The notes under the pieces were generated by a model, which was not told where the DNA came from, did not search any database, and worked only from the letters and a program-made list of their open reading frames with translations. From Hexactinellida sp. DTS-2022 (taxonomy: Eukaryota; Porifera; Hexactinellida): a DNA stretch of 64,000 nt. Of this stretch, positions 12,545 through 64,000 are shown in pieces (the stretch's first letter is position 1; each line of letters begins with the position of its first letter). Location of the stretch: NCBI GenBank assembly GCA_028753945.1, contig JAPNXP010000004.1:1302001-1366000 (forward strand). Reading direction: 5' to 3'. The translations under genes were made by a program, and so were the position numbers.

Positions 12545-12598
12545 AGCACTAAGATTAGAACTGGGCCACTATACTATAGTATAGTCGGCACAGTAATA
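12545..12598. repeat. single palindrome-minisatellite unit
   Basis: One copy of gcactaagattagaactggg followed by the 18-bp palindrome actatactatagtatagt and cggcacagta. It sits directly upstream of a family A hairpin. Confidence 0.85.
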
Positions 12599-14028
12599 AA
12601 AAATCCAAAATTGCAGCCTGTGCCGACGCATGTTCCTTTGGTGGCACTATATTTTGGTGGTGGTTTATTGATAGTGCCTCCATAGGAACATGCTGTCGGC
12701 GCAGGCTGCAATTTTGGATTTTTTTTCCGCCATGTCATCATCACTATGAAGGTGTTAAATTATTTCAGTAAGGTGTTTCAGAAGGCAACGACCCTTAGAG
12801 TCGTGGAAGTTTCCATTTTGCTCACTTCGTTTCAAAGATATTCAAGTTTCAGTAGAATATAATAAGTGATGAGTCTGCATTTTTTATGTGAGTGTTGGGT
12901 CATCACCCAACACCAACTAACCCATTTTGAATGTCGAATTAAAAAAATTGTAAAAATACATTTTTTTAACGATGTCATCATCACCTCAAGGTGTCAAGAC
13001 CCACTTGTATAGGTGGTACCTGGCATAAGGACCAATTGATAAATTGAAAGTTTGTTTATATCTTGTATCATCTCTGAGATTAATGAAATTTAGCTAATTA
13101 GCATAAAAATTTAATTAATGTATTAATTATTTAACACCACTATTATATACAGCAAAATAAATTAAGTTCAATTATTTGCAATTATTATTAATTTAAATTG
13201 AATTTCACTATAATGTTTGAATTCCACGCACTCGATAAACCCAATAATCCAATTGGAACCGTCTATAAGTTAAATACAAAAGGAATTAATTATAATTAAT
13301 TACGTCAGTACATTAATTGTGCAAGAATATTCTCGCCGAAATAAATATATTCACTTAATCTGTCGTTGTTGTGGAATGTAAAATCTTAACGGTTCTATCA
13401 TTGAGTTTAAAGCCATTCATTCATTATGTATCGATAATAAATTATATTATTAGTTATTTATTTTAGCAATGTTATCCACGGTTAAGTTGAATTAAGTGAA
13501 CAAATTCCTTATATTATAATATTTTATTTAATCCATTGTATAGTAATACTAGAATTAAATAGAAGCCAGCTGGAATTTATAAGTTAAATCAATATAATTA
13601 TCGCAAGTTGAATCACTAGAGTAGGATTTAACAAGTTAAATGAATATAATTATTACAAGTTGAAACAATGGAATTAGATTTCACAGTTTACTGAAATTGA
13701 AGTGTGAGTAAACAAAGAAATTTCAACCCCCATTTATGGCAGAAATTGACCCCTTTATTGAAAAATTTCTTCTCCCATCAGACGCAGAATTTTATGGCGA
13801 ATCCAAAAGTGAAATAAAATTTGGGGGTTTAATAAAACAATTTTTGAGTTATGGACCAGACAAATTTTGAAAGGTGTTAAAAATGTGTCCAAAATTTGTT
13901 AATAAAAAATCGTAACCCCAGGTGCACATCTGTAACCCATGAGACACCCATCCTAAAAATTTGGGCTCTTAGTTGATAAAACTCTGTTCTGTGGAGTGGC
14001 TAGGGATAAATAATAATAATAACTAACC

Positions 14029-14335
14029 AAGGCACTGAGATTAGAACTGGGCCACTATACTATAGTATAGTCGGCACAGTAATAAAGGCAGTGATTCTAA
14101 TACTGGGCCACTATACTATAGTATAGTCGGCACAGTAAAAATAATATTAAAGGCAGTGATTCCAATACTGGGCCACTATACTATAGTATAGTCGGCACAG
14201 TAAAAATAATAATAAAGGCAGTGATTCCAATACTGGGCCACTATACTAAAGTTTAGTCGGCACAGTAATAATATACAATAAAGGCAGTGATTTCAATACT
14301 GGGCCACTATACTATAGTATAGTCGGCACAGTAAA
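14029..14335. repeat. palindrome minisatellite, five copies
   Basis: Five tandem units of about 62-66 bp, each holding ctgggccactatactatag and its completion tatagtcggcacag. The 18-bp palindrome is perfect in four copies; the fourth reads actatactaaagtttagt. Spacers (aataataaaggcagtgatt) vary more than the palindrome. Confidence 0.9.
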
Positions 14336-25497: not shown

Positions 25498-25790
25498 GAT
25501 ATACTTTCATTGCTTGTACACTGATTATATAAGAAAACCCCAGTAGGTGACAAAGGTAACTATTCACCATTGAACAATTGTTTTTGAGCGTTATACATAA
25601 ACTGTTATGTGTATACAAGTTCCCATTTAGTCAACGTTGACGAAATGGGAATTGACGAAATAGGAAATTGACGAAATGGGAATTGACGAAATGGGAATTG
25701 ACGAAATGGGAATTGACGAAGTGGGAAATATCTCCGCAATAGGTGACTTCCTATTCATCGATAGTACATTTTCTATGTCTTACTTTGATA

Positions 25791-38544: not shown

Positions 38545-38935
38545 GGATCCTTCCCTGATTTTATGATGAATCCAATGGTGAAATACAATTTTGGAGGTAG
38601 GTATAACATATTTTGAGTTATGGACCAGACAAATTTTGAATTGTGTCCAAAATGTGTTAATCAAAAATTGTAACCCCAGGTGCAAATTAGACGGTCCATC
38701 CGCATCTACATGCCAAGTTTCTGGCCATCAACTATAAATCTCTGGCCAGGGCACCGTCTACGGAGAAAAAAAAAATCCAAAATTGCAGCCTGTGCCGACG
38801 CATTTCCCTTTGGAGGCACTACATTTGGTGGTTGGGTAACTAGTATTGCCTCCAAAGGGAAATACTTTCGGCACAGGCTGCAATTTTGGATTTTTCCGAC
38901 ATGTCATGAACGGCTCAAGGTGTTTATGTTGCAGT
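38545..38935. repeat. partial family A unit with diverged hairpin
   Basis: Contains the gtaaccccaggtgcaaatta module with gacggt...accgtc and a full hairpin at about 38775-38898. This hairpin differs from the others at several stem positions on both arms (see findings). A GC-rich inverted segment (38477-38555) precedes it. Confidence 0.85.
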
Positions 38936-41085: not shown

Positions 41086-41867
41086 GTAGGTTCGTCCATG
41101 TCTATTGTGGTAGGACCTAAGGGGAAGAAAGTTTCGGATCCCCTGTTTGGTGTGCCAAATGTGACCTTGAAAATGCAACCAAACATTCAAATAATGTGAG
41201 AGCTGGGATCAAGAGAAAACAGGAGAAACTACACGATCGTATGGTTTCATCTGCAGCTAATAAGTTTCAACCAGCTGCTGTCGGCGATAATGTAGTCGTC
41301 CCTATTGAAAGGCCTGATAAAATGCATTCCCTTATCCCACGAAATATGCTAGCTGTAGTACTAGTTACAGATATTTCGGAAGACATCTACACAATTGGCA
41401 CGAGAGATGGTACAGTAAATACCAATTACACAAGAAATCAGTTCGAAGTCTGCTCATCTAATACGTTTATTCAGACTTAGAATGTCCCAGAAGCCATAAT
41501 TTCTCAAACTTCTGCAATGCGAAAGGCTTCATTAGGAATTGAGAATAATTATTTTTGCAGATGTAACCATTGTAAGACAACACGATGTCCATGCAAGAAG
41601 TCATCCAGAAGCTGTGGCACTAAATGCCACAAAGGTATAATATGCTTCAACAACTAAATTATCATTAGTCGTTGGATAACTTGCCATTAATTTTAGTATG
41701 GTGAAATTTCAACTATGTATTGACACTTTTGACAGTATCGTGTAGTAACTAGTATCGAATTGTTTCCAATTACATTCAATCGATTAGAATCTAATAATTT
41801 GAGAAATACATGTCACAATTTTATATTCAGTTAAACAAGATGAATTAGAAAGTATTCATTAAACAAT

Positions 41868-44547
41868 CAGAAAAATCCAAAATTGCAGCTATGCCGACGC
41901 ATGTTCCTTTGGTGGCACTATATTTTGGTGGTGGTTTATTGATAGTGCCTCTAAAGGAACATGCTGTCGGCACAGCTGCAATTTTGGATTTTTTTTCGCC
42001 AAGTCATCAACGCCTCAAGGTGTCAAGATCCATTTGTTAATTGGTCTTAGTCACAAGGAACGGTAGATAAATTTGAAGATTGTTTCCATCATAAACCATC
42101 TTGAGTTTAATGCCATTCATTCAATATGTTTTGATAATAAATTATATTATTAGTAATTATTTTAGCAATGTTATCCACGGTGAGTTGAGTTGAGTCAACA
42201 AATTCCTTATATTATTTAATTAATTCAATCCATTGTACATATATACTACAATTAAATAGAAGCCAGCTGGAATTTATAAGTTAAATCAATAAAATTATTA
42301 CAAATTGAAACAATGGAAGTAGATTTCACAGTTTTACTGAAACTTAAGTGTGAGTAAACAAAGGGAATTTGCAAGTAAATTGTGGCAAAACGAAGCCCAA
42401 TTTTAAAATTCCTGCACTGTAACAAGGTGTAGAATTTAATTATCTATCCAAATATGTAAATTTTATCAAGTTCACTATTTATTATTTCATGTTATGAGCC
42501 ATAATTAGCTTAAATAGGTGTCAAAAGTATTTGATCAAAAATCGTAACCCCAGGTGCAAATTAGACGGTCACTCGCACCTGCATTCCAAGTTTCAGCCCT
42601 CAATGTATAAAGGTGTGCCCAGGGCACCGTCTACGGAGAAAAGAAAATCAAAAATTGCAGCTGTGCCGACGCATATTCCTTTGGTGGCACTATATTTTGG
42701 TGGAGGTTTATTGATAGTGCCTCCAAAAGAACATGCTGTCGGCACAGCTGCAATTTTGGATTTTTTTCGCCATGTCATCAACGCCTCAAGGCGTTAAACA
42801 ATTTCAGAAAGGTGTTCAAAAAGGCAACGACACTTAGTGAGTTGGAAGTTCGTTTTAGCTCAATTCATTTCAAAGATATTCAAGTTTCAGTAGAATATAA
42901 TAAGTGATGAGTCAGCATTTTTATGTTGCGTGTTGGGTGATCATCCAACACCAACCAACACATTCGAAATATAGAATTCACAAAATTGTAAAAACACAAT
43001 TTTTTGACGTTGTCATCATCACCTCAAGGTGTCAAGACCCATTTGTAGAGGTGTTAAGTGACATAAGGATCAATTGATAAATTGGAAGTTTGTTTCTATC
43101 TTGTATCATCTCTGAGATTAATGGTATTTACAGTAATAGATATAGTGATATATTGGATATAGTGATGATTTTGCAGCTTTAGGTGCGTTCCCGAGCAAAT
43201 CCCATACAAATTTTATTGGTTATAGTGATATCATTATTGGATATAGTGATAATTTGTGTACAGATTATACAAGAATATTGGATTTTTGACCTTCCTTGGA
43301 CCCCATAATTTCATATTTTACAGTATAAATGTCGTTACCACTTGAATTTGAGAAGGAATTTGATTATTCTTTTCAGAATATAAGTATTGACAACATATAC
43401 AGTCATATATTAGATGCGGTGATACAGTAGATATAGTGATATAAAGGGTATAGTGATATATTGGATATAGTGATAATTTGGCCACAAATCAGATGTCCCC
43501 ACCATTATCACTATATCCAATATGTACTGTACCAAATTAGTTTAAATAATTATTAAAATGATTAATAATTAACACCTATTTCAATGTCAACTTAAATTTA
43601 TTAAGATTAATTATTTGTCATAAATAGTAAATATAATTAATTTGGCTACCATATTTCAATTTCACACACTCGATAATTATTCCCTAATAAACAAATTGGA
43701 AGCATATATACAAGTAAAATACGGACTGAATAATTAATTACGTCAGTATATTATAAATGCAAGAGTATTCTTTCAGATGGAAATATAATCACATATTCTG
43801 TCGTAGTTATGGAATGTAAAATCTCGGTTTTCAATTGGATAATAGAAGCCTACTCGATTTCACAAGTTGAATCAATATAATTATCGCAAGTAGAAACAAT
43901 AGAATTAGATATAACACTTTCAATTGAACTGAAGTGTTAGTAAACAAAGGAAATTTGCAACTCAATAGTGGCACAAACGAAGCGCCATTTCAAAATTCGT
44001 TTACTGTGAAACGGTGTATAATTTAATTTTCTATCGAATGCATATAAATTAAATATTCGGGTACTTTTATTGTTCCTGTTTCAATATTAAACAGGTGTAA
44101 AAATGTGTCCAAATCAATATAATCTAAAATCGTGACCCCAGGTGCACATCTGTAACCCATGAGACATATATCCTGAAAATTTGGGCTCTTAGTAATAATA
44201 ACTCTGTTCTGTGGAGACGATACGGACCAATAAAAAAATCCAAAATTGCATGCCTGTGCCGACGCATGTTCCTTTGGTGGCACTATATTTTGGTGGTGGT
44301 TTATTGATAGTGCCTCCAAAGGAACATGCTGTCGGCACAGCTGCAATTTTGGATTTTTTTTCGCCATGTCATCATCACTATGATGGTGTTAAGTTATTTC
44401 AGAAATGTGTTTCAAAAGGCAACGACCCTTAGTGAGTTGGAAATTTCGTTTTAGCTCCCTTCATTTCAAAGATATATAAGTTTAAGTAGAATATAATAAG
44501 TGATGAGTCAGCATTTTTTATGTGCGTGTTGGGTGATCTCCCAACAC
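41868..44547. repeat. family A units, second cluster (left part)
   Basis: Hairpins at about 41874-41993, 42647-42767 and 44237-44357. Marker modules cgt(a/g)acccc lie near 42540 and 44128. The middle unit is interrupted by the Tigger-like element 43129-43531, and the last by the MULE at 44548. The unit resumes at 46854. Confidence 0.87.
43129..43531. mobile_element. pogo/Tigger-like MITE with iterated tatagtgata
   Basis: tacagtaatagatatagtga at the left and tcactatatccaatatgtac-tgta at the right are inverted. ttggatatagtgat and relatives occur about seven times inside. Flanking family A sequence is split at a TA. Confidence 0.8.
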
Positions 44548-46853: not shown

Positions 46854-48300
46854 CCCAACACCAACCTACCCATTCGAAATATATAATTCACAAAATTGTA
46901 AAAACACATTTTTTTACGATGTCATCAACACCTCAAGGTGTCGAGACCCATTTGTAGAGGTGGTACGTGGCATAATGATCAATTGATCAATTGGAAGTTT
47001 GTTTCTATCTTGTATCACCTCTGAGATTAATGAAATTTAGCTAATTAGTATAAATATTTAATTAATAAATTAATAATTTAACACAATTATTATGTACAGT
47101 AAATAAATGAAGTTCAATTATTTGCAATTAGAATTAATTTTAATTTAATTTCACAATCATATTTGAATTCAGCGCACTCGATAACCCCAATAATCTAATT
47201 GGAACCGTCTCTATAAGTTAAACACAGAGCTAATTAATTAGATTAAATATGTCATGTATCCATTGTGCAAGAATATTCTAAGCAGAAATTAATATGATCA
47301 CATAATCTGTCGATGTTATGGAATGTAAATCTTAGTTTTCAATTGGAAAATAGAAGCCTACTCAATTTTACAAGTTGAATCAATATAATTATCACAAGTT
47401 GAAACGATAGAATTAGAATTAACACTTTAATTGAACTGAAGTGTTAGTAAACAAAGGAAATTTGAAACTCAATTGTGGCAAAAACTAAGTACAATTTGAA
47501 AATTCATTCACTGTGAAAAGGTGTAGAATTTAATTTTCTATCGAATGCATATTAATTTAATTTTCGGGCACCATTTATTGTTCCTTTTCAAACATTAAAC
47601 AGGTGTAAAAATGTGCCCAAAGATTTTTAATCAAAAATCCTGACCCCAGGTGCACATCTGTAACCCATGAGACACCTGTCCTGAAAATTTCAGTTCTTAG
47701 TAAATATAACTCTGTTCTGTGGAGTGGATACGGAAGGATAATATACCAAAGCACTAAGATTAGAACTGGGCCACTATACTATAGTATAGTCGGCACAGTA
47801 ACAAAGCACTAAGATTAGAACTGGGCCACTATACTATAGTATAGTCGGCACAGTAAAAATAAAGGCAGTGATTTCAATACTGGGCCACTATACTATAGTA
47901 TAGTCGGCACAGTAATAATAATAATAAAAATCCAAAATTGCAGCCTGTGCCGACGCATGTTCCTTTGGTGGCACTATATTTTGGTGGTGGTGTATTGATA
48001 GTGCCTCCAATGGAACATGCTGTCGCACAGGTGCAATTTTGGATTTTTTTCGCAATGTCATGAACGCCTCATGGTGTTGATACTCATTCAACAAGTTGTT
48101 AAGGGACAAGGGAACGATTGTTGAATTTAAGTGTATTTCTATCTAGAACCGTCTTGAGTTGAATGCCATTCATTCATTATGTATTGATAATAAATTATAT
48201 TATTTATTAATTATTTTATCAATGTTATCCACTGTGAGTTGAGTTAAGTAAGCAAATTCCCAATTTAATTTAATTTGCTTTAATCCATTGAATATTAATA
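46854..48300. repeat. family A unit, second cluster (right part)
   Basis: Resumes the unit broken by the MULE (caaccta-cccattcgaaatat). It contains the module cctgaccccaggtgca (47636), three palindrome units (47744-47913) and a hairpin at about 47930-48047. Confidence 0.87.
47744..47913. repeat. palindrome minisatellite, three copies
   Basis: Three units containing the unchanged actatactatagtatagt palindrome between ctgggcc and cggcacagta, directly before a hairpin. Confidence 0.9.
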
Positions 48301-48715: not shown

Positions 48716-50516
48716 TAACTGTTGAGTGAAATTGAATTTTCATATAGGAGAAAACTTTAATACAACCATGTATTAGAAATCGATTTATATAGTAATAGCT
48801 ATTGAATGTAAATTAATTATTTATATATACGAGAATTCTTTATTGTAATTATGAAATCAACAATAACTTGAATCGAAATAACACTGAATCTAATTGAATT
48901 ATTCATAAATAGTAGTTCTTCATCGAAACCACGAAATAATTGCATAAGTGAATATTAATGAATTTACGATTTTAGAAAGTTAAGGATGAATTGTGGCAAC
49001 TTTGAGCCTAATTATCAGGAAAATGAGGACGGATTAAACAAATCGTGAAGAGCAATCAGTTGCAAAATACTTTTCTGATACTAATGATTCTAAAATTTTT
49101 GTCATTGCATTTATTTTCTTATGGGACAAAAAAAGCTAAAAGTCCCGTTAACAATTTTTTAAAATCGAAAATTAATAAATCGTGACCCCAGGTGCACATC
49201 TGTAACCCATGAGACACCTATCCTGAAAATTTGGGTTCTTAATTAATAAAACTCTGTTCTGTGGAGTGGCTACGGACTAATAATAAAAAATCCAAAATTG
49301 CAGCTGTGCCGACGCATGTTCCTTTGGTGGCACTATATTTTGGTGGTGGCTTATTGATAGTGCCTCCAATGGAACATGCTGTCGGCACAGCTGCAATTTT
49401 GGATTTTTTTTTCCGCCATGTCATCATCACTATGAAGGTGTTAAATTATTTCAAAAAGGTGTTTCAGAAGGCATCGACCCTTAGAGTGGTGGAAGTTTCC
49501 ATTTAGCTCACTTCATTTTAGAGATATTCAAGTTTGAGTAGAATATAATAGCTGATGACTCAGCATTTTTTATGTGAGTGTTGAGTCATCAGTCATCACC
49601 CAACATCAACTAACCCATTTTAAATATCGAATTAACAAAATTGTAAAAACACATTTTTTTAACGATGTCATCATCACCTCAAGGTGTCAAGACCCACTTG
49701 TATAGGTGGCACGTACCATAAGGACCAATCGATAAATTGAAAGTTGATTTCTATCTTCTATAATCTCTGAGATTTATGATATTTAATTAATTAGTATAAA
49801 TAATTATTAATATTATATATAATTTAGCACCAATTTCAATGTCAACTTATATTTATTAAGTTAAATTATTTTGTCATAAATAATTAATTAATTAATTTGG
49901 CTATCAAATTTCAATTCCGCACTCTCGATAACCCCTAATAAACAAATTGGAAGCATCTTTATAAGTCATATACTGACTGAATTAATTATAATTAATTACG
50001 TCAGTATATTAACAGTGCAATAATATTCTCGCAGAATTAAATATAATCACATAATCTGTCGTTGTTATGAAATATATAATCTTTTTTTTCAATTGGAAAA
50101 TAGAAGCCTACTCAATCTCACAAGTTGAATCAATATAATAATAACGAGTTGAAACAATAGAATTAGATTTAACACTTTCAATTGAACTGAAGTGTTAGTA
50201 AACAAAGGAAACTTGCAACTCAATTGTGGCACAAACTAAGTACAAATTGAAAATTCGTGCACTGTGAAAAGGTGTAGAATTTAAGTCTCTATCGAATGCA
50301 TATAAATTTAATTTTCGGGTACTATTTATTGTTCCTGTTTCAATATTAAACAGGTGCAAAAATGTGTCCAAAAAAATGTAATAAAAAATCGTAACCCCAG
50401 GTGCACATCTGTAACCCATGAGACACCCATCCAAAAAATTTAGGGCTCTTAGTTAATAAAACTCTGTTCTGTGGAGTGGCTACGGATAAATAATAATAAT
50501 AATAATAATAATATAC

Positions 50517-50572
50517 CAAAGCACTAAGACCAATACTGGGCCACTATACTATAGTATAGTCGGCACAGTAAT
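50517..50572. repeat. single palindrome-minisatellite unit
   Basis: gcactaagaccaatactggg followed by the perfect palindrome and cggcacagtaataa, directly before a hairpin. Confidence 0.88.
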
Positions 50573-53500
50573 AATAATAATAATAATAAAATCCAAAATT
50601 GCACCCAGTGCCGACGCATGTTCCTTTGGTGGCACTATATTTTGTTGGTTGTTTATTGATAGTCCTCCAATGGAACATGCTGTCGGCGCAGGGTGCAATT
50701 TTGGATTTTTTTTCGCCATGTCATCATCACCATGAAGTTGTTAAATTATTTCAAAAAGGTGTTTCAGAAGGCATCGACCCTTAGATTGATGGAATTTTCC
50801 ATTTAGTTCACTTCATTTTGGAGATATTCAAGTTTAGTAGAATATAACAGCTGATGACTCAGCATTTTTTATGTGAGTGTTGGGTCATCACCCAACATGA
50901 ACTAACCCATTTTAAATATCGAATTAACAAAATTGTAAAAACACATTTTTTTAACGATGTCATCATCACCTCAAGGTGTTAAGACCCACTTGTATAGATG
51001 GCAGGTGCCATAAGGACCAATTAATATATTGAAAGTTTGTTTCTATCTTCTATGAGCTCTGTGATTTATGTGATTTAATAAATTAGTTAAATAATTATTA
51101 ATATTATATATAATTTAACACCAATTTCAATGTCAACTTATATTAATTAAGTTTAATTATTTTGTCATAAATAATAAATTAATTAATTTTGTTATCAAAT
51201 TTCAATTCCGCACACTCGATAACCCCTAATAAACAAATTTGGAGCATCTATATAAGTCATATACTGACTTAATTAATTATAATTAATTACGTAAGTTTAC
51301 TAACAGTGCAAGAGTTTTCTTGCAGAAGGAAATATAATCACATAATCTGTCGTTGTTATGGAATGTAGAATCTTAGTTTTCAATTGGAAAATAGAAGCCT
51401 ACTCGATCTCACAAGTTGAATCAATATAATAATAACGATTGAAACAATAGAATTAGATTTAACACTTTCAATTGAAAAGAAGTGTTAGTAAACAAAGGAA
51501 ACTTGCAACTTAATTGTGGCACAAACTAAGTACAATTTGAAAATTCGTGCACTGTGAAAAGGTGTAGAATTTAATTCTCTATCGAATGCATATAAATTTA
51601 ATTTTCGGGTACTATTTATTGTTCCTGTTTCAATATTAAACAGGTGCAAAAATGTGTCCAAAAAAATGTAATAAAAAATCGTGACCCCAGGTGCACATCT
51701 GTAACCCATGAGACACCCATCCAAAAAATTAGGCCTCTTAGTTAATAAAACTCTGTTCTGTGGAGTGGCTACGGATAAATAAAAAATCCAAAATTGCAGC
51801 CTGTGCCGACGCATGTTCCCTTGGTGGCACTATATTTTGCTGGTTGTTTATTGATAGTGCCGCCAAAGGAACATGCTGTCGCCACAGGCTGCAATTTTGG
51901 ATTTTTTTCGCCATGTCATCATTACTATGAAGGTGTTAAATTATTTCAGAAAGGTGTTTCAGAAGGCAACTACCCTTAGAGTGGTGGAAGTTACCATTTT
52001 GCTCACTTCGTTTCAAAGATATTCAAGTTTCAGTACAAAATAATAAGTTATGAGTCAGCATTTTTTATGTGCGTGTTGGGTGATCACCCAAACCAACCGA
52101 CCCATTTGAATTTTATAATTCACAAAATTGTGAAAAACACTTTTATTTACGATGTCATAAACACCTCAAGGTGTCAAGACCAATCTGTAGAGGTGGTACG
52201 TGGCATATGGATCAATTGATAAATTGGATTTTTGTCTCCATCTTGCATAATCTCTGAGATTTATCAAATTTGGCTAATTTGTCTAAATATTTAATTTATT
52301 TATTAATAATTTAACACCATTATTATGTACAGCAAAATAAATTAAGTTCAATTATTTGCAATTATTAATAATTTAATTTTAATTTCACTATCATATTTGA
52401 ATTCTGCACACTCGATAACCCCAATAATCTAATTGGAACCGTCTCTATAAGTTAAACACAGAGCGAATTAATTAGAATTATATATGTCATGTATCCATTG
52501 TGCAAGAATATTCTAAGCAGAAATAAATATAATGACATAATTTGTCGTTGTTATGGAATGTAAAATCTAAGTTTTCAAATGGAAAATAGAAGCCTACTCG
52601 ATTTCACAAGTTGAATCAATATAATAATAACGAGTTGAAACAATAGAATTAAATTTAACACTTTCAATTGAACTGAAGTGTTAGTAAACAAAGGGAATTT
52701 GCAACTCAATTGTGGCACAAACGAAACCCAAATAAGAAATTCGTGCACTGTGAAAAGGTGTAGAATTTAATTCTCTATCGAATGCATATAAATTAAATAT
52801 TCGCGGACTATTTATTGTTCTTTTTCTAGTATTAAACAGGTGTAAAAATGTGTCCAAAAAAATCTAATCAAAAATCGTAACCCCAGGTGCACATCTGTGA
52901 CCCATGAGACACCCATCCTAAAAATTTGGGCTCTTAGTTGATAAAACTCTGTTCTGTGGAGTTGCTACGGATAAATAATAATAATAATCCAAAATTGCAG
53001 CTGTGCCGACGCATGTTCCTTTGGTGGCACTATATTTTGGTGGTGGTTTATTGATAGTGCCTCCATAGGAACATGCTCTCGGAACAGGCTGCAATTTTGG
53101 ATTTTTTTTTCCGCCATGTCATCATCACTATGAAGGTGTTAAATTATTTCAGAAAGGTGTTTCAGAAGGCAACGACCGTTAGAGTCGTGGAAGTTTCCAT
53201 TTTGCTCACTTCGTTTCAAAGATATTCAAGTTTCAGTAGAATATAATAAGTGATGAGTCAGCATTTTTTATGTGAGTGTTGGGTCATCACCCAACAACAA
53301 CTAACCCATTTTAAATGTCGAATTAAAAAAATTGTAAAAACACATTTTTTTAACGATGTCATCATCACCTTAAGGTGTCAAGATCCACTTGTATAGGTGG
53401 TACGTGCCATAAGGACCAATTGATAAATTTAAAGTTTGTTTCTATCTTATATCATTTCTGAGATTAATGAAATTTAGATAATTAGTATAAATATTTATTT

Positions 53501-54255
53501 AATCTATTAATAATTTAACACCAATATTATGTACATCAAAATATATTAAGTTCAATCTTTTGCAATAATTATTCACTTAAATTGAATTTCACTATCATAT
53601 TTGAATTCAGCGCACTCGATAATCCCAATAATCTATTTGGAAGTTGGAACCATCTCTATACATTAAACACAGAGCTAATTAATTAGAATTAAATATGTCA
53701 TGTATCCATTGTGCAAGAATATTCTAAGCAGAAGTAAATATAATACATAATCTGTCGTTGTCGTGGAATGTAAAATCTTAGTTTTCAAATAGAAAATAGA
53801 AGCCTACTCGATTTCACAAGTGGAATCAATATAATTATCGCAAGTTTAAACAATAGTGTAAGATTTAACAAGTTTAATGAATATAATTATTACAAGTTGA
53901 AACAATGGAATTAGATTGAAATTGAAGTGTGAGTAAACAAATAAATTTCAACCCCCATTTATGGCAGAAATTAAACCCATTACTAAAAATTTCTTCACCC
54001 ATCAGACACAGAATTTGAAGATGAATCCAAAGATGAAATAAAAATTGGGGGTTTAGTAAAACATTTCTTGAGTTATGGTCCAGACAAATTTTGAAAGGTG
54101 TTAAACATGTGTCCAAAATTTGTTAATCAAAAATCGTAACCCCAGGTGCACATCTGTAACCCATGAGACACCCATCCTAAAAATTTGGGCTCTTAGTTGA
54201 TAAAACTCTGTTCTGTGGAGTGGCTACGGATAAATAACAATAATAATAATAACTA

Positions 54256-54308
54256 ACCAAAGCACTAAGACCAATACTGGGCCACTATACTATAGTATAG
54301 TCGGCACA

Positions 54309-54340
<32 letters not shown>

Positions 54341-54402
54341 TAACCAAGGCAGTAAGATTAGAACTGGGCCACTATACTATAGTATAGTCGGCACAGTAAT
54401 AA
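54256..54402. repeat. palindrome minisatellite, two copies
   Basis: Two units with unchanged palindrome, separated by (aat)n, followed by a hairpin. Confidence 0.88.
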
Positions 54403-56837
54403 AAAAATACAAAATTTCAGCCTGTGCCGACGCATGTCCCTTTGGTGGCACTATATTTTGTTGGTGGTTCATTGATAGTGCCTCCAAAGGAACATGCTGT
54501 CGGCGCAGGCTGCAATTTTGTATTTTTTTTCGCCAAGTCATCAACTCCCAAGGTGTGAAGAACCATTTGTTAATTGGTCGGAGCTACAAGGAACGGTAGA
54601 TAAATTTGAAGTTAGTTTCTATCATAAACCATCAAGAGTTTAATGCCATTCATTCATTATGTATTGATAATAAATTATATTATTAGTAATTTATTTTAGC
54701 AATGTTATCCACGGTTGTTTGAGTTGAGTCAACAAATTCCTTATATTATTATAATTTATTTAATCCATTGTATAGTAATACTAGAATTAAATAGAAGCCA
54801 GCTGGAATTTATAAGTTGAATCAATTTAATTATCGCAAGTTGAAACAATAGTGAAAGATTTAACAAGTTAAATCAATATAATTATTACAAGTTGAAACAA
54901 TGGAATTAGATTTCACAGTTTTATTGAAATTGAAGTGTTGAGTAAACAAAGGAATTTCAACCCCCATTTATGGCAGAAATTAAACCAATTTTAACAAATT
55001 TTCTTCTCCCATCAGACGCAAAATTTTAAGATGAATCTAAATATGAAATAAAATTTTGGGGTTTATTAAAACATATTTTGAGTTATGGACCAGACAAATT
55101 TTGAAAGGTGTTAAAGTTGTGTCAAAAATTTGTTAAACAAAAATCGTAACCCCAGGTGCAAATTAGACGGTCCCATCGCACCTACATGCCAAGTTTCAGC
55201 CCATCAACAATAAAGCTCTTGCCAGGGCACTGTCTACGGAGAAAAAAAAAAATCCAAAATTGCATCCTGTGCCGACGCATGTTCCTTGGGTGGCACTATA
55301 TTTTGTTGGTGGTTTATTGATAGTGCCTCCAATGGAACATGCTGTCGGCACAGGATGCAATTTTGGATTTTTTTTTCGCCAAGTCATCATCACTATAAAG
55401 GTGTTAAATCATTTCAAAAAGGTGTTACAGAAGGCATCGACCCTTAGAGTGGTGGAAGTTTCGTTTTAGTTCACTTCCTTTTAGCGATATTCAAGTTTGA
55501 GTAGAATATAACAACTGATGACTCAGCATTTTTTATGTGAGTGTTGGGTCATCACCCAACATGAACTAACCCATTTTTAATATCGAATTAACAAAATTGT
55601 AAAAACACATTTTTTTAACGATGTCATCATCACCTCAAGGTGTCAAGACCCACTTGTATAGGTGGCACGTGCCATAAGGACCAATTGATAAATTGAAAGT
55701 TTGTTTCTATCTTCTATGATCTCTGAGATTTATGATATTTAATTAATTAGTATATATAATTATTAATATTATTTATAATTTAACACCAATTTCAATGTCA
55801 ACTTATATTTATTAAGTTTAATTATTTTGTCATAAATAATAAATAAATTAATTTGTCCATCAAATTTCAATTCCGCACACTCGATAACCCCTAATAAACA
55901 AATTGGAAGCATCTATATAAGTCATATACTGACTGAATTAATTATAATTAATTACGTCAGTATATTAACAGTGCAATAATATTAACGCAGAAGTAAATAT
56001 AATCACATAATCTGTCGTTGTTGTGGTATGTAAAATCTTAACGGTTCTATCATAAACCATCTTTAGTTTAATGCCATTCATTCATTACTTATTGATAATA
56101 AATTAAATTATTAGTTATTTATTTTAGCAATGTTATCCACGGTGATTTGAGTTTAGTCAACAAATTCCTTATATCATTATATTTTATTTAATCCATTGTA
56201 TAGTAATACTACAATTAAATAGAAGCCAGCTGGAATTTATAAGTTGAATCAATATATTTATCTCAAGTTGAAACAATAGAGTAAGATTTAACAAGTTAAA
56301 TCAATATAATTATTACAAGTTGAAACAATAGAATTAGATTTAACACTTTTACTGAAATTGAAGTGCGAGTAAACAAAGAAATTTCAAACCCCATTTATGG
56401 CAGAAATTAAACTTATTTTTGAAAATATTCCTCTCCCATCAGACGCAGAATTTTATGGTGAATCCAAATGTGAAATAAAATTTGGGGGTTTAGTAAAACA
56501 TATTTTGAGTTATGGACCAGACAAATTTTGAAAGGTGTTAAAGATGTGTCAAAAATTCGTTAATCAAAAATCGTAACCCCAGGTGCAAATTAGACGGTCC
56601 ATACGCACCTACATGCCAAGTTTCAGCCCATCAACTATAAAGCTCAGGCCAGGGCACCGTCTACGGAGAAAAAAAAAAAATCCAAAATTGCAGCCTGTGC
56701 CGACGCATGTTCCTTTGGTGGCACTATATTTTGATTGTGGTTTATTGATAGTGCCTCCAAAGGAACATGCTGTCGGCGCAGGCTGCAATTTTGGATTTTT
56801 TTTCGCCAAGTCATCAACGCCCAAGGTGTGAAGAACC

Positions 56838-57022
56838 CAGGGTTTCATCCAGGCGTATGCGACGCGCCTCCAGGCGCGTAATTTAAAAAGAAAACTTTTC
56901 TAGGCGCGTGAAAATCAAGAGATGCTCCCATAGACGTAATACAAATTGATCATTTTAGGCGCGTGTGAGCGAGCTCAATCTTGATCTAGGCGCGCGGGAA
57001 ATTTTTCCTGGATGAAAGCCTG
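56838..57022. mobile_element. hAT MITE, 8-bp duplication gaagaacc
   Basis: Ends cagggtttcatccagg and cctggatgaaagcctg are inverted. Flanks 56830-56837 and 57023-57030 are both gaagaacc. It carries the ggcgcg(t/c)-rich core seen in the remnant at 984-1100. It interrupts a family A unit that is continuous elsewhere (caaggtgt.aagaaccattt). Confidence 0.94.
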
Positions 57023-58054
57023 GAAGAACCAATTGTTAATTGGTCGTTGTCACAAGGAAGGGTAGATAAATTTGAAGTTTGTTTCGATCATAAACCATCT
57101 AAAGTTTAATGCCATTCATTCATTATGTATTGTTAATAAATTATATTTATTAGTTAGTTATTTTAGCAATTAAATCCACGGTGAGTATTTAATAGTTTAC
57201 TGAATATTGAGTGTGAGGAAATCTTGGAGATTGGCACCCAAATTATGGCACAAACTAGGCAAAATTTATCATTTGTGATTTGACAAAATGTGTATAATTT
57301 AATTCTCTATCTGTACATTTAAATTTTATCAAGCTCAATATTAATTATTTCATGCTATGAGCCATAATTAGTTTAAATAGATGTTAAAAGTATTTGATCA
57401 AAAATCGTATCCCCAGGTGCAAATTAGACGGTCACTCCACAATTACATGCCAAGTTTCAGCTCTAAATGTATAAAGGTGCGGCCGGGGCAACGTCTACGG
57501 AGAAATATAAATAATAAAAACAAAAATTATGGGCTGTTTCGATCCTCTATAGATCTCATCAGCAGGATAGTAACAATCCTGGACAGCGACAAAACATTAC
57601 AACACACATAGAGAACATAGAGACACATAGAGAAAATGGTAATATATAACAACGTCTCAAGGTGTCAAGAACCATTTATTAATTGGTCCGAGTCACAAGG
57701 AACGGTAGATAAATTTGCAGTTTGTTTCTATCATAAACCATCTTGAGTTTAATGCCATTCATTCATTATGTATTGATAATAAAATGTACTATTAGTTTTT
57801 ATTTATTTTAGCAATGTTATCCACGGTGAGTGAGTTAAGTGAACAAATTCCTTATTTAATTTGATTTGTTTTAATCCATTGTATAGTAATATTGCAATTA
57901 AATAGAAGCCAGCTCCAATTCAAAAATTGAATCAATATAATTATCGCAAGTTGAAACAATAGTGTAAGTTTTAACAGAACCCATTTTCATAGTCGACAAA
58001 ACATAACCATATCGGGCGTGTATAATCAACAATTGCAGGAACAATGAGACGAAA

Positions 58055-59278: not shown

Positions 59279-62200
59279 TTAGTATTGCAATCTATAGACT
59301 GCATCATAGTGGTTAGCAGAAGGTCCAGAGAAATTAATACTATGAAATAACACAACAAGGTGTCTCCCTCCATATATTGGATCACTTGGTTTACCGAGAG
59401 TATTCTCAATAGACACATCAGTTATTACCCATTTAGAAGGGTCTGTAACAACAGCATTAATGTAACTAACATTAATACCAGCTAAGATTCCAAACATAAT
59501 AAGTTCATTCAGAGTTCCCCAAGAGTAATTACACCGCATAGTATTCAAGTGTTGCTGAATAGTAACTGCATTATAGCCTTGGATGCCACAGAAAGCAGCA
59601 ACATAAGGACTTTGTTCAAATGTGTCTATTAGAGAACCACGGATATTATGATGCTCACTTTCATCACCGAAAATAATGTGAGACAATGTTCTAAAGAAAC
59701 AATTCCCATCACTTATTACAGGAACTATCCTGAAATTAAACCGATCTCTTATATTTGTACGCATAAAATCGTAATAACTAGTAGCAGAGACTCTAGACCC
59801 AGTATAGTTAGTCGGTCTTAAAGGTATTCTCTGTAGATTAATGCATGCTGCTAATGACTGTCTCATCGCAAATGTGAATGAATTAGCATTGTCATATGTA
59901 TTTACGGGAAACAGCACAGGAGTAGGGATGTGTACATGACTAACAATTACATCCTGAATATCCTTGGTTGTATTATCAATTGGTATTTGGTCAATATCAA
60001 TAATATCATGTTGACTAGTAGCATGTGATATAATTGGTTGATTATCCAGATTACTACAGTCACTAACAACACTTCCAAGAGAAATCAACATTGGCTTATG
60101 ATCACTAAAGTATGATTCATAAAAACCAGATGAAGAGATCAAGTTTTTAGTGAATACACAATCCAGCTGAGATCCATAGTTAGAGGATACTCCAGACAAA
60201 GATTGCATCATCCCTTTATTTGAAAAATACTTTACCAGGGTATCTCTCTCAAGAGATCGCGCAAATAAATCTATATTGAAGTCCCCAGTAACTATCAAGG
60301 AATCAGAGTTATCAATTTTACATAGAACCTGATCAAGTTCAGAGTAAAATTCCTTCATTAGGAATTGTGGTGATCGGTATATAGACATTACCACGACAGG
60401 TTTATCGATAATCATGGGATCATAGAACTGGAGAATCAATATCTCGATCCTAGCGCCATTATGACAGCCTGAGTGTGCAATTAAAAACTTACACATCGCT
60501 GGATTTCGGGAGTATATGTGTGTACCAGAACCAGGAAGTCTAGCACTACCATCAATTCTACCAATGAGAGTATGACCAGGGATATTAAAGTTATCAGTGG
60601 CTAAAGTCATTGTCTCCTGCAAGATTAACACTTGGGATTGTACTATGAATTGATTTACGGTCAAATCTTCCCAGTGTTTGTTCAATGAACGAACATTGTG
60701 TACATAGATATCTGGACTAGTTAGTGGAATAGACCAGATAATAGCACAGTGTTCTCTTAACCGCTTAAGTTCTAAGTGGACAGGATCTTTTTCAGATAAC
60801 TTATTAGTTAGTTTTAGATTACCAACTACAAACAGACCAGATGCCGATTTAGCCCTACTGAGCGCGGTGTATAACGCATTACGTAGCAAACGTACTTCTA
60901 TATGGACTACAACACAGTCGTAAGTATCGCCTTGACTCTTATGAATTGTAAGAGCTTCGGCTACTATGAAAGGAAACTGCTTCCTAACTATCTTATAGGA
61001 ACTCACACCTTTCCCTCTTTGGAAACGTCGTGTTTCCAATCCAATAGGAGTCCAGTTCCTTGGAATTGCATTATCTCTAAGATAACGATGGTGAGACTTT
61101 GCTCGTTTATCCTTTCCTACTGTTGGATCGTCAAACTCCATCCAGAGAATACAGGGAACTCGTTCCAGAGAATCGCTCTTGGTACCATAAACAATTTTCT
61201 TCAAGAGGCCAGTAGCTCCATTAACCAGACCATCTTGTATGTCGTTATTCACTGTCATGAGGTATCTAGCGCCTAGCTTCAAGAAGAGCTCATAGGGTAG
61301 TCCCTGGGTGTCACATACCTTTAGGTGTTTAATAAGGTTACTCAGCTTGTCAGTAATACCTCCAGCATTGTCTCCTACTAAAGAATCAATAGCTATAAAT
61401 CTAAAACCTTCAGTGGTTAATGCATTGAGAACAATCTCGTTATGAACATTAACACTGGCGTTTGTACTAAACAGATGGATAGATTTTATGGGAAGATTCT
61501 CATAAGAATCTTTCGCAATAATTCTACTGGTAAAAAGATTTGTGTCATCCTCAGTTAAACAACAGTTAGCAAAATTGTTCAATGCTAATGCAAACTTCTG
61601 ATCATCTTTTTGTCTCATTATTTCCGTCAGTTCTATATATGAGAATTTTTCCCAAAGGTACGGACCAACCAGTCCGTCGTAATTATTGGCACTGGAGACT
61701 GAAATTTGAAATACATAGCTATCCATAACCGGACGTAACTGGTGGAAATCTCCAACACAGATGATGGAGACACCACCAAAGTCCAGTGAATTGTCCATAA
61801 TGGCTTTCAATCGCTTATTAACCTGAGACATAATTTTACTACCAACCATGGATATTTCATCTATTATGATAACTTTTAAATAGCTTAGCTTACTTCTTAA
61901 TGTGTTACAAACATCAGAAGATAAGTTGGGCATTTCACCGTTAAACTCCGTTACAGGTAAAGCAAATGCAGAATGGAGTGTCATACCACGGATATTAAAA
62001 GCAGCTTTACCTGTAGGAGCTGTTAGCAGTACCTTAATAGCATCAGGCTTAGTGCCAGGTAGTGAATTCATAAATCTTACCAAACCTTCGTATAAGACTC
62101 GTACCACCGTACTCTTACCAACACCAGCACCTCCTCCTATATAGAGATACATAGGTAGCTGCTTGATAGTCTTAAAGCAGTGCAGAGTGTGGAGGAATAC

Positions 62201-64000
62201 AGTACGCTGAACCTTGTTCAAGCTGCGACACATCTCAAGGAATACCTCCTCAGTATTCATGTTAGGAATAGTGAAGAATCCTCCTACAGATTTAGTTCCG
62301 GGGTCACTATTGGGATCTACAGTCCAGGGATCGTCGTTCCCTGGATTGTCTACCTGGAAGTCAGTATCCTCAATAACCACTGCACCCTCATTGTTCATTA
62401 TTTCCTCAATAGCAATTCCATCAAAGTTGAGCTCATCAGGGTCCAAGTCCTCGAGGATATTAATAGCCGCGTCAATTGAGGATTGGTCTCTACTTTCAAA
62501 TAATTCCCTATTCTGAGTAATCAGATTAAGATGGGTAGCATACATAGACTTAAAGTCAATATTGTCAGTATCACTACTGTCTGTTCTCCATGGTACAAAA
62601 AGCATTAACTGTTCTCTATAAAAGTTAACTTCGTCCTGTATAATACTATACCTTCTAAATCGAATAATTTTAGCTTTACGACGAAGTCTCATAAAACCTG
62701 TATCTTTGAGAGGAAATAATCTCGGATTATCGACCAGGGAAGCTGCCTCGTCTTCCATATTTTCCTCATCAAAGTCGGGATTAATTTTACATATTCGCTT
62801 ACTAGATTGGAATTCATACCATGCGGCAAACTCAGCTAGGCATGTTTCCTCTAACTCATCAGGTCGTTGCATGTAGTGCTCAATTAGACCTGACAGAAGT
62901 ATATCTACAGAATCCTGTTCCATACCCATTAGAACGGGTTTGGACTTGAGTATCCTAACCCGTTTATTAGCCGGATTGGTGTTAATATAGACATTAGCTC
63001 TACTGCACTTAGAGAGAGGGAGACTGAGGAGATGGTAAGAAACCTCCTGGGCTGATACCTCGCTACAGCTCTGAAATTTGTATGCAATTCCCCTCAGTCT
63101 CTCCTTAATAGTGGCATTGCCTGCTTTCAGATGCATCAAGGCATCTCTCAACAACTTAGACATCCCACGTTGGGACTTTCCGATATACGAAATAACATAA
63201 ACAGCACAAGCATATGGATCCAATATGTATTGGAGATCCATATTAGCTTTCCAGAGATGCAATATAGTCTTATTATGAGCATTGATTCGTATCTCATTCA
63301 AATTTCGTTTCAGAAATATAGTAGATCTATTTATACAAGATCTCAATGCAGTTATGTATTGCTCTTCGGTAACATAGAGTTCATTAAAGAAATCCTGTAT
63401 CGTTATACTACCCAAGTCAGTATCGCTCTTATCATAAGTGTCAATTAGAGTATATATTTTCTTAGCAGTCTCCTTAAGAGCTGCATTAGCTGCTATCTCC
63501 TCCTTGGTAGCCGTACTGGCATCAAACTCCAATGGTTCTAGAATTTTAGTTGATACCATTGGAGGGTACGGAATACCAAACCTACAGCGCCGAAACGACT
63601 TTTTCTTATAACACGTATTCGTGTGCTTATGTCGCTGTAACTTAATGTCATCCTCAGTTATTATACTAGTCTCATCTGGCAATTTAACTGAGATAGTACG
63701 ATCAATAAATTCTATTACTTCAGGTAACGAATTGTGGCCATACTTAGGGGCATCTTGTACCCAAAGTAAAGAATGCACATGTGGTGACCCTCTTTGCTGA
63801 AATTCTATTCTCAAATAGTAATCAGTCAATTTACCAAGGGGACTAACCTCTGATCGAAGCACCTTAAATAGCTCCTTGGAGCGGTGATCAAAGTACCTAG
63901 CACAAGTGACAGGATCTCTCCTTATCAGATCTGCTCTCTCGCTCCACTGGAATTCCAGAACCTCTTCAACAGACAGCTTAACGTCATCTAGGATCTGTTT
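59279..64000 (-). CDS. Helentron Rep-helicase-endonuclease-OTU polyprotein, 5' partial
   Basis: One uninterrupted frame runs from the window edge to TAA at 59279, about 1,573 visible residues; the true start lies beyond 64000. The Met-like start at 63862 is a GTG, and the frame stays open upstream (VEEVLEFQWSERADLIRRDP). Domain order: a Helitron-like Rep nuclease with the HUH motif in EFQQRGSPHVH (near 63790) and tyrosines in AVYVISYIGK (near 63190). Then a Pif1-type SF1 helicase with Walker A GGGAGVGKST (near 62125), Walker B IIIDEISMVG (near 61860) and LTIHKSQGDTYD (near 60910). Next an apurinic-like endonuclease (about 60100-60720) with LQET, GDFNID and SDHKP. Last an OTU protease (about 59290-59750) with SDGNCFF and NHYDAVY. 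All catalytic residues visible are present. Such proteins drive rolling-circle transposition of Helentrons. Confidence 0.95.
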   Translation of the reverse strand, partial: KQILDDVKLSVEEVLEFQWSERADLIRRDPVTCARYFDHRSKELFKVLRSEVSPLGKLTDYYLRIEFQQRGSPHVHSLLWVQDAPKYGHNSLPEVIEFIDRTISVKLPDETSIITEDDIKLQRHKHTNTCYKKKSFRRCRFGIPYPPMVSTKILEPLEFDASTATKEEIAANAALKETAKKIYTLIDTYDKSDTDLGSITIQDFFNELYVTEEQYITALRSCINRSTIFLKRNLNEIRINAHNKTILHLWKANMDLQYILDPYACAVYVISYIGKSQRGMSKLLRDALMHLKAGNATIKERLRGIAYKFQSCSEVSAQEVSYHLLSLPLSKCSRANVYINTNPANKRVRILKSKPVLMGMEQDSVDILLSGLIEHYMQRPDELEETCLAEFAAWYEFQSSKRICKINPDFDEENMEDEAASLVDNPRLFPLKDTGFMRLRRKAKIIRFRRYSIIQDEVNFYREQLMLFVPWRTDSSDTDNIDFKSMYATHLNLITQNRELFESRDQSSIDAAINILEDLDPDELNFDGIAIEEIMNNEGAVVIEDTDFQVDNPGNDDPWTVDPNSDPGTKSVGGFFTIPNMNTEEVFLEMCRSLNKVQRTVFLHTLHCFKTIKQLPMYLYIGGGAGVGKSTVVRVLYEGLVRFMNSLPGTKPDAIKVLLTAPTGKAAFNIRGMTLHSAFALPVTEFNGEMPNLSSDVCNTLRSKLSYLKVIIIDEISMVGSKIMSQVNKRLKAIMDNSLDFGGVSIICVGDFHQLRPVMDSYVFQISVSSANNYDGLVGPYLWEKFSYIELTEIMRQKDDQKFALALNNFANCCLTEDDTNLFTSRIIAKDSYENLPIKSIHLFSTNASVNVHNEIVLNALTTEGFRFIAIDSLVGDNAGGITDKLSNLIKHLKVCDTQGLPYELFLKLGARYLMTVNNDIQDGLVNGATGLLKKIVYGTKSDSLERVPCILWMEFDDPTVGKDKRAKSHHRYLRDNAIPRNWTPIGLETRRFQRGKGVSSYKIVRKQFPFIVAEALTIHKSQGDTYDCVVVHIEVRLLRNALYTALSRAKSASGLFVVGNLKLTNKLSEKDPVHLELKRLREHCAIIWSIPLTSPDIYVHNVRSLNKHWEDLTVNQFIVQSQVLILQETMTLATDNFNIPGHTLIGRIDGSARLPGSGTHIYSRNPAMCKFLIAHSGCHNGARIEILILQFYDPMIIDKPVVVMSIYRSPQFLMKEFYSELDQVLCKIDNSDSLIVTGDFNIDLFARSLERDTLVKYFSNKGMMQSLSGVSSNYGSQLDCVFTKNLISSSGFYESYFSDHKPMLISLGSVVSDCSNLDNQPIISHATSQHDIIDIDQIPIDNTTKDIQDVIVSHVHIPTPVLFPVNTYDNANSFTFAMRQSLAACINLQRIPLRPTNYTGSRVSATSYYDFMRTNIRDRFNFRIVPVISDGNCFFRTLSHIIFGDESEHHNIRGSLIDTFEQSPYVAAFCGIQGYNAVTIQQHLNTMRCNYSWGTLNELIMFGILAGINVSYINAVVTDPSKWVITDVSIENTLGKPSDPIYGGRHLVVLFHSINFSGPSANHYDAVYRLQY

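What the first reader, a model, noticed from the sequence alone, without database searches (positions are those of the whole stretch)
49170..57975. Hairpin repeat whose two arms co-vary between copies
About fifteen copies of a 120-bp hairpin occur in the family A units (positions in the features). The arms differ between copies, yet changes are often matched on the other arm. At 55250 the left gcatcctgtgcc is matched by ggcacaggatgc where most copies have gcagcc/ggctgc. At 50590 gcaccc is matched by gggtgc. At 54408 aaatacaaaatt is matched by aattttgtattt where others have cc/gg. At 38775 ttccctttgg is matched by ccaaagggaa. A single unpaired base and a T-T mismatch at fixed places are kept in most copies. 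Some copies (11328, 44237, 52985) break the rule. Either arms are copied from each other (cruciform repair, hairpin-primed synthesis) or the folded form is selected.
Basis: seen in the sequence. Interest (0 to 1): 0.8.

Follow-up and report, generated by a model that had tools for sequence, protein, structure and literature searches.

The report
Long end hairpin of Helentron transposons
The repeated hairpin is the tail end of a very abundant rolling-circle jumping element, and its two arms do sometimes change together, probably because the folded shape helps the element to stop copying itself; this is a long variant of something already known.

Summary
The window holds 15 copies of a hairpin of about 130 nt; its inner left arm has 4,949 places genome-wide at up to 3 mismatches.

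Matched double changes exceed chance: 14 against 0.9 with randomly re-paired arms (0 of 5,000). They are a minority: of 259 inferred changes from a Watson-Crick pair, 186 break it, 59 give G-T, 14 restore it. The unpaired state C..C has 277 copies, its matched form C..G 80.

The 'family A units' are non-autonomous Helentrons (HINE type) in head-to-tail arrays beside an autonomous partner; an 845-bp unit matches that partner's two ends at 89-90%. The hairpin is the 3' end; its terminal arm carries the inverted repeat that matches the 5' end.

Arm copying is disfavoured: a T-T mismatch stands in 114 of 116 copies, and the arms depart unequally in the repeat segment (9 vs 84). Selection on a folded end signal is the best reading. 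Compensatory changes in such hairpins are in print; length, reach to the terminus and embedded repeat make this a variant.

The parts
49281..49412 (-). 3'-terminal hairpin (strand given is that of the Helentron reading frame; same for all hairpins listed)
50582..50714 (-). 3'-terminal hairpin, matched CACCC/GGGTG variant
51777..51910 (-). 3'-terminal hairpin; T-G at the T-T site
52978..53110 (-). 3'-terminal hairpin, arms not matched at the CAGC/GGCTG site
54398..54531 (-). 3'-terminal hairpin, matched ATACAAAATT/AATTTTGTAT variant
55243..55376 (-). 3'-terminal hairpin of the amplified CATCC/GGATG subfamily (112 places with that matched pair genome-wide)
56671..56804 (-). 3'-terminal hairpin, reference copy; no non-standard pair among the 46 counted
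10490..10602 (-). 3'-terminal hairpin with its outer terminal arm lost
11317..11448 (-). 3'-terminal hairpin, arms not matched
12594..12727 (-). 3'-terminal hairpin
38766..38899 (-). 3'-terminal hairpin of a diverged lineage; T-T site is A-T here
41866..41997 (-). 3'-terminal hairpin
42638..42769 (-). 3'-terminal hairpin
44229..44362 (-). 3'-terminal hairpin, arms not matched at the CATGCC/GCTG site
47921..48052 (-). 3'-terminal hairpin
54398..55242 (-). 845-bp non-autonomous Helentron: matches the 3' 353 bp (89%) and 5' 458 bp (90%) of the autonomous copy L032, with the middle missing
49281..56804 (-). head-to-tail array with seven hairpins, hairpin spacing 845-1428 bp
54276..54397 (-). two copies (54276-54310, 54363-54397) of the 35-nt 5'-terminal hairpin ACTGTGCCGAC...GGCCCAGT, with (TTA)n between
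50535..50569 (-). 35-nt 5'-terminal hairpin
47765..47913 (-). three tandem copies of the 35-nt 5'-terminal hairpin
14046..14332 (-). four exact copies of the 35-nt 5'-terminal hairpin (14046, 14102, 14167, 14298) in a 65-bp tandem array
12560..12594 (-). 35-nt 5'-terminal hairpin
59279..63862 (-). part of the autonomous Helentron protein inside the window (end of Helitron_like_N, PIF1 helicase, endonuclease); the open frame continues beyond the window
57650..57976 (-). stretch near the 3' end of the autonomous copy that is shared with a unit (87.5%)

Best explanation
The hairpin is the 3' terminus of a Helentron family (endonuclease-bearing, Helitron2-type rolling-circle transposon) and of its deletion derivatives. 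The tandem 'family A units' are those derivatives, head to tail. Shown: common ends with an autonomous copy whose frame is open; a 5' hairpin with an inverted repeat (ACTGTGCCGAC) whose partner (GTCGGCACAG) lies in the terminal arm of the 3' hairpin; an excess of compensatory changes. Inferred: during strand displacement the single-stranded 3' end folds and tells the Rep-helicase protein where the element stops. Selection on source elements then tolerates a single mismatch but over time favours changes that restore pairing, while the terminal arm's inverted repeat is held by its sequence. Copies decay without constraint after insertion, which would explain why most changes seen are unmatched.
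For: Identity: L032 has an open 1669-aa frame with Helitron_like_N, PIF1 and endonuclease domains, and the hairpin lies downstream of that frame in L032 and L033. An 845-bp unit matches the 3' 353 bp and 5' 458 bp of L032. In L033 and L031 the hairpin's T-run runs directly into ACTGTGCCGAC of the next unit. The 5' 35-mer is exact in all 14 places found in window plus L031 with up to 6 errors allowed and has 6,767 places genome-wide at up to 3 mismatches, control 0. Beyond the terminal arm the flank differs between copies (e.g. L037, L040, L041, L047, L052, L066; only 14 nt seen in each), and in L010 and L017 it is unlike any unit.

Selection on the fold: matched doubles 14 vs 0.89; main family alone 9 vs 0.36; divergent relatives alone 5 vs 0.46, where 2 of the 5 fall on one main-type copy (L005) that my sorting put into that set (0 of 5,000 each). 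9 vs 1.3 pairs by shuffling (0 of 500). At the most variable pair, genome-wide: T..A 112, T..C 16, G..A 27, C..G 80, G..G 3. Repeated haplotypes average 1.0 non-standard pairs (10 haplotypes) vs 1.73 in 83 singletons; no test made, and the most repeated haplotype was the search query.

Precedent: deleting the 3' hairpin of a bat Helitron lowers transposition and raises read-through, and swapping its stem keeps about 90% activity (PMC4778049, passages).
Against: Most arm changes are not compensated (186 broken, 59 G-T, 14 paired). The unpaired C..C state is in 277 copies, more than its matched form (80), so a single mismatch does not stop amplification. Within-copy matching is no better than matching to nearest relatives. 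Slid controls on the covariance-model alignment reach 6 pairs and nearly the same covariation score. A first simulation null gave 7, 1 and 5 of 300 runs at or above the observed double-change and pair-type measures, a weaker excess. The internal arm drifts in the repeat segment with little compensation. The matched counts rest on few independent events; of the T..A places listed, most share one background. The tree was built from the hairpins themselves, with probable recombination between copies. In the bat element changing the loop abolished the benefit of the hairpin, whereas the loop varies here. No function was tested.
Confidence: 0.68

Rival explanations
1. Arms are copied from each other: mismatches in a cruciform or folded single strand are repaired using the other arm, so the arms stay complementary without selection.
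For: The same matched change (C-G to A-T in ATACAAAATT) sits on two different backgrounds, L116 and window 54398. The matched form C..G occurs on at least two loop backgrounds. One lineage (L086/L087) has the hairpin inverted relative to its surroundings, which suggests that the arms can recombine.
Against: T-T kept in 114 of 116 main copies, 36 of 38 when only copies not chosen by the inner arm are counted (1 A-T, 1 T-G); the unpaired base in 63 of 65. Copying would erase both. C..C persists in 277 copies. In the eight repeat-segment pairs outside the search pattern the terminal arm departs 9 times, the internal arm 84 times (106 unique copies); copying would even them out. Caveats: these are copies, not events; 41 of the 84 are one site where the internal arm gives G-T; without it 9 vs 43, and in the 30 copies not chosen by the inner arm 4 vs 9.
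Confidence: 0.12
2. No constraint at all: a few subfamily founders happened to carry matched arms, amplified, and were mixed by recombination.
For: The matched copies listed mostly share one or two loop backgrounds. Nearest-relative comparison shows no copy-level matching. Most variation is one-sided.
Against: Matched events also occur at pairs 1, 2, 3, 9, 10, 13, 28, 30, 33, 34 and 45 of the 46 counted, and in divergent relatives (one of the two at pair 3 is the damaged copy window_10469 and probably chance). Random re-pairing gives about 1 and at most 7; slid partners 0 to 2. A long stem persists in subfamilies that differ in sequence, such as ATCTAAAATTACAGC/GCTGTAATTTTAGAT.
Confidence: 0.13
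3. The fold acts as RNA (a source of small RNAs or a processing or termination signal).
For: The long stem is bounded by A and T runs. G-T makes up 59 of 259 changes.
Against: No Rfam match in the window. The position at the element terminus and the shared inverted repeat with the 5' end point to DNA ends. G-T is also simply a transition in one arm.
Confidence: 0.05
4. The hairpin is an independent foldback element (MITE) that merely inserted into satellite-like units.
For: Some divergent hairpins lie beside sequence unlike the usual element body, e.g. L081, L082, L085, L088, and so by eye does one main copy, L083. C3 has a tandem run of hairpin-like 115-bp repeats.
Against: In the main copies listed, other than L083, the same element body begins at one side of the hairpin (read by eye; a loose motif count agrees, but it is too loose to be a test). 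The hairpin sits at the 3' side of two of the three autonomous copies read. It shares the inverted repeat with the 5' end.
Confidence: 0.05

Closest known systems
Helentrons and their non-autonomous HINE/DINE-1 elements (Thomas et al. 2014, PMC4067079, passages seen; author names recalled)
   Same: RepHel protein with endonuclease; deletion derivatives with the partner's ends; inverted repeats near both ends; palindrome at the 3' end; simple repeats; T-rich boundaries; clustering.
   Different: Reported palindromes in the mite families are 5-10 bp and lie about 8-35 bp from the 3' end. Here the stem has about 50 pairs and reaches the terminus, and the 3' inverted repeat lies inside its terminal arm.
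DINE-1 3' stem-loop of Drosophila (Yang and Barbash 2008, PMC2374699, passages seen; author names recalled)
   Same: 3' stem-loop whose stem sequence differs between species; the authors infer compensatory mutations and a possible terminator role in rolling-circle replication.
   Different: 7-11 nt stems compared between species; here a long stem, counted and tested within one genome.
Helitron2 group (Bao and Jurka 2013, PMC3627910, passages seen; author names recalled)
   Same: 5'-terminal hairpin that includes the 5' asymmetric inverted repeat; 3' repeat about 20-30 bp from the 3' end; compensatory base changes noted in two related elements.
   Different: There the 3' repeat lies upstream of the 3' hairpin; here it is part of the hairpin's terminal arm.
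Bat Helraiser/Helibat (Grabundzija et al. 2016, PMC4778049, passages seen; author names recalled)
   Same: 3' hairpin as transposition terminator; stem sequence replaceable; read-through when it fails; circles with joined ends.
   Different: Helitron1 type with TC/CTAG ends and a 19-bp palindrome 11 nt inside the end.

Membership tests
Helentron / HINE (Helitron2 type) | Autonomous partner with Rep-like N domain, PIF1 helicase and endonuclease in one protein | tested here: met
   L032:3477-8486, 1669 aa: PF14214, PF05970, PF14529/PF03372; window part
Helentron / HINE (Helitron2 type) | Rep HUH motif with catalytic tyrosines | not tested
   Only the profile match to Helitron_like_N was made
Helentron / HINE (Helitron2 type) | Non-autonomous copies share both ends with the autonomous partner | tested here: met
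   Unit 54398-55242 matches L032 9443-9093 (89%) and 580-124 (90%); the other four units tried match the two ends over shorter or less similar stretches
Helentron / HINE (Helitron2 type) | Asymmetric or subterminal inverted repeats, the 5' one at the end, the 3' one about 20-30 bp inside | tested here: met
   ACTGTGCCGAC at the 5' end, GTCGGCACAG about 20 nt from the end of the hairpin. Many array units lack the 5' 35-mer
Helentron / HINE (Helitron2 type) | 5'-terminal hairpin containing the repeat | tested here: met
   35-mer folds at -8 kcal/mol as DNA, 0 of 200 shuffles as good
Helentron / HINE (Helitron2 type) | Palindrome at or near the 3' end | tested here: met
   The hairpin itself
Helentron / HINE (Helitron2 type) | Usual size and place of that palindrome (short, 3' of the repeat, a few bp inside the end); typical rather than defining | tested here: not met
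   About 50 pairs, reaching the terminus, repeat inside the arm. This is why I call it a variant
Helentron / HINE (Helitron2 type) | Insertion at TT or in T-rich DNA without target duplication | tested here: inconclusive
   T-runs at the 3' end seen; no empty site examined
Helitron1 (canonical) | 5'-TC and CTRR-3' ends, no terminal inverted repeat | tested here: not met
   Ends are ACTGTGCC... and ...GGATTTTTT with inverted repeats
MITE / foldback element | Inverted repeats at both ends of the mobile unit, target duplications | tested here: inconclusive
   In main-family copies the palindrome is at one end of a longer element; duplications not tested; some divergent hairpins have other flanks
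Known structured RNA | Match to a curated Rfam family | tested here: not met
   0 matches in the window at gathering scores

The most novel reading that the evidence does not exclude
Because the stem runs to the very 3' end, a displaced single strand would carry a base-paired 3'-OH. The element could use it to prime its own second strand, somewhat as parvovirus end hairpins do (that comparison is recalled, from no call). This would make it a Helentron with a rolling-hairpin step; occasional inversion of the hairpin (the L086/L087 lineage) would be a trace of it. My data neither show nor exclude this. By eye I saw no inversion among the main-family copies listed.
Probability: 0.06. Interest if true: 0.78.

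Novelty: new variant of a known kind. Interest (0 to 1): 0.42.

Why it matters
In the papers seen here, compensatory change in Helitron-type end hairpins was inferred from a few elements or species. This genome has thousands of copies of one family together with autonomous copies whose frames are open, so selection on the folded end, arm copying and neutral decay can be told apart by counting. The unequal conservation of the two arms hints which part is read as sequence and which as shape.

Tried and rejected
Rfam search of the window: no match. tRNA search: none. First tree-simulation null: its expected paired fraction (0.74) was too low, I think because events were placed on internal branches too often, so I did not use its paired-percentage result; its other measures (7, 1 and 5 of 300 simulations at or above observed) point the same way as the re-pairing test but more weakly. 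Alignment A2 mixed sense and antisense matches because the hairpin is nearly palindromic; I dropped it and rebuilt with a strict cut-off (A3). The genome-wide G..C count did not complete, so expected values under independence are given only for a range of N: T..A expected 6-35, C..G expected 10-58. The T..A pattern differed slightly from the others (no strand-specific tail, CACAGG where they have CAGG). L007 repeats window sequence and was left out of my copy counts. 18 partial hairpins were dropped in each. The A-tract pairs were dropped from the event tests. window_10469 lacks a true outer arm and was dropped from the main-family test; it contributes one of the 14 matched events in the ALL test. 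L005_641, a main-type copy, was sorted into the divergent set.


Full report
WHAT IS THERE. A single-sequence profile search finds 15 copies of the hairpin in the window, the best match of each in one orientation, 7 of them between 49281 and 56804. They fold into a long stem with a loop of about 20 nt, except that 10490-10602 has lost its outer left arm. Seven tested as single-stranded DNA fold at -43 to -61 kcal/mol, z -11 to -17, none of 200 shuffles as good. Across the unnamed 112.4-Mb genome the inner left arm has 2,511 + 2,438 places with up to three mismatches and none for the control.

WHAT THE UNITS ARE. The window ends inside an autonomous Helentron on the minus strand. Another copy (L032) has an open frame of 1669 aa with Helitron_like_N, PIF1 helicase and endonuclease domains, and an upstream frame with DUF6570. 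Read on the minus strand, an array unit starts near TCCGTAG, in part of the copies preceded by (TTA)n and one or more copies of a 35-nt 5' hairpin beginning ACTGTGCCGAC, and ends with the 3' hairpin. The 845-bp unit 54398-55242 matches the 3' 353 bp (89%) and 5' 458 bp (90%) of L032 with everything between missing; four other units tried match the two ends over shorter or less similar stretches. The hairpin follows the Helentron frame in L032 and L033; in the window's own autonomous copy the place holds other sequence. In L033 and L031 the T-run of the hairpin passes directly into the 5' hairpin of the next unit, a head-to-tail junction; in L032 it passes into TCCGTAG without that 5' hairpin. 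Beyond the terminal arm the flank differs from copy to copy, although in most fetched copies I saw only about 14 nt of it, while the element body on the other side is shared. So I take the hairpin to be the 3' end. No empty site was examined.

THE TWO ENDS. The 5' 35-mer was exact in all 14 places found in window plus L031 with up to six errors allowed, and has 6,767 places genome-wide at up to three mismatches. Its start, ACTGTGCCGAC, holds the inverse of GTCGGCACAG in the terminal arm of the 3' hairpin, about 20 nt from the end. This is the arrangement described for Helitron2 elements (PMC3627910, passages), except that there the 3' repeat lies upstream of the hairpin.

DO THE ARMS CO-VARY? 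Copies used: window, flanks of the first search, 20 chosen 10-kb pieces, three Helentron stretches, 80 of the 100 places listed (all on C1, all with an exact inner left arm), and 20 places of a divergent subfamily. From 154 hits 136 were full length. With a structure-blind alignment, a tree and parsimony, 14 same-branch changes in 127 unique copies are exact complements of each other, against 0.89 on average when arms are re-paired at random (maximum 7; 0 of 5,000). The main family alone gives 9 vs 0.36, the divergent set 5 vs 0.46 (2 of these 5 on one main-type copy sorted there); slid partners give 0 to 2 (the first 88 copies gave 10 vs 0.83). An alignment made with a covariance model gives 9 pairs with double change vs 1.3 by shuffling (0 of 500). 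Its slid controls give 2 to 6 pairs and, at slide -2, a covariation score of 0.023 against 0.024, so that alignment alone would be weak evidence; it also leans towards its structure and leaves out the most variable pair.

HOW MUCH? Little. Of 259 changes from a Watson-Crick pair, 186 break it, 59 make G-T, 14 restore it. Double changes fill 10 of 5,011 cells. Mismatch between a copy's own arms (0.052) is barely under that between arms of random main copies (0.057; 0 of 5,000 as low) and is above that with nearest relatives (0.045-0.046). At the most variable pair the genome holds T..A 112, T..C 16, G..A 27, C..G 80, G..G 3 and the unpaired C..C 277; G..C was not obtained. Thus right-arm G occurs far more often with left-arm C than with left-arm G, yet C..C itself has spread widely. 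Selection, if that is the cause, acts on the stem as a whole and over subfamilies, not on each pair in each copy.

WHICH CAUSE? Copying between arms should remove mismatches and even out the arms. The T-T mismatch stands in 114 of 116 main copies; the 78 chosen by an exact inner left arm could not show a change on that side, and among the other 38 it stands in 36. The unpaired base stands in 63 of 65. In the repeat segment the terminal arm departs 9 times from consensus and the internal arm 87 times (106 unique copies); at the eight of these pairs outside the search pattern 9 vs 84, of which 41 are one site giving G-T, and 9 vs 43 without it. In the 30 copies not chosen by the inner arm the figures are 4 vs 20, or 4 vs 9 without that site. 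The outer stem gives 41 vs 29. So the terminal arm seems held by sequence where it carries the inverted repeat, and the internal arm is freer; these are copies, not independent events. Against this reading stand the same matched change on two backgrounds (L116 and window 54398) and one lineage with the hairpin inverted (L086/L087); recombination between copies can explain both.

MECHANISM. Best supported: an end signal for rolling-circle transposition. In the bat Helitron, removal of the 3' hairpin lowers transposition and raises read-through, a foreign stem keeps about 90% of activity, and a changed loop behaves like removal (PMC4778049, passages). A fold that matters more than its stem sequence would leave such slow, partial compensation among source elements, blurred by decay of dead copies. 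Head-to-tail arrays fit with bypass of the signal or replication of circles, as discussed for Helitrons and Helentrons (PMC4067079; PMC5148889; passages). These steps are inferred here.

KNOWN OR NEW. Compensatory changes in such hairpins are in print: between Drosophila species for DINE-1 (PMC2374699, passages) and in two Helitron2 elements (PMC3627910, passages). The listings of the paper searches (20 of 32 shown, 12 of 207, none found) hold no title that announces a Helentron 3' hairpin of this length or a within-genome covariation test. Titles and starts of abstracts are all I saw of most of them, so I claim no absence. I file it as a new variant of a known kind.

Noticed in passing
window 14046-14332 and 47765-47913; C1:2422545-2423020: The 35-nt 5' end occurs in tandem, three to eight times at mostly 55-85 bp spacing, so some elements carry several 5' ends in a row; the window copies are identical, unlike the 3' hairpins.
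   Followed up: partly
window 57504-57640: The autonomous Helentron copy of the window lacks the 3' hairpin; other sequence sits at that place.
   Followed up: partly
L086 and L087: In this divergent lineage the hairpin is inverted relative to its surroundings.
   Followed up: partly
L093 (C3:4730300-4730800): Tandem run of about 115-bp repeats each holding most of a divergent hairpin, as if the hairpin alone had become a satellite.
   Followed up: no
window 23052-25729: A MULE transposase frame (23267-24424) is flanked by 15-bp minisatellites that are nearly complementary to each other (23052-23158 and 25637-25729).
   Followed up: no
window 44602-46839: A second MULE frame (45303-46496) is flanked by 31-bp minisatellites that look complementary (44602-44773 and 46690-46798).
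   Followed up: no
genome G000: A second group of proteins with the Helitron_like_N domain, several with open frames of about 1,830-1,930 aa, scores higher than the group studied here; its 3' ends were not read.
   Followed up: no
window 7428-8351: A 307-aa open frame with several hydrophobic stretches like a membrane receptor (by eye); no Pfam match.
   Followed up: no
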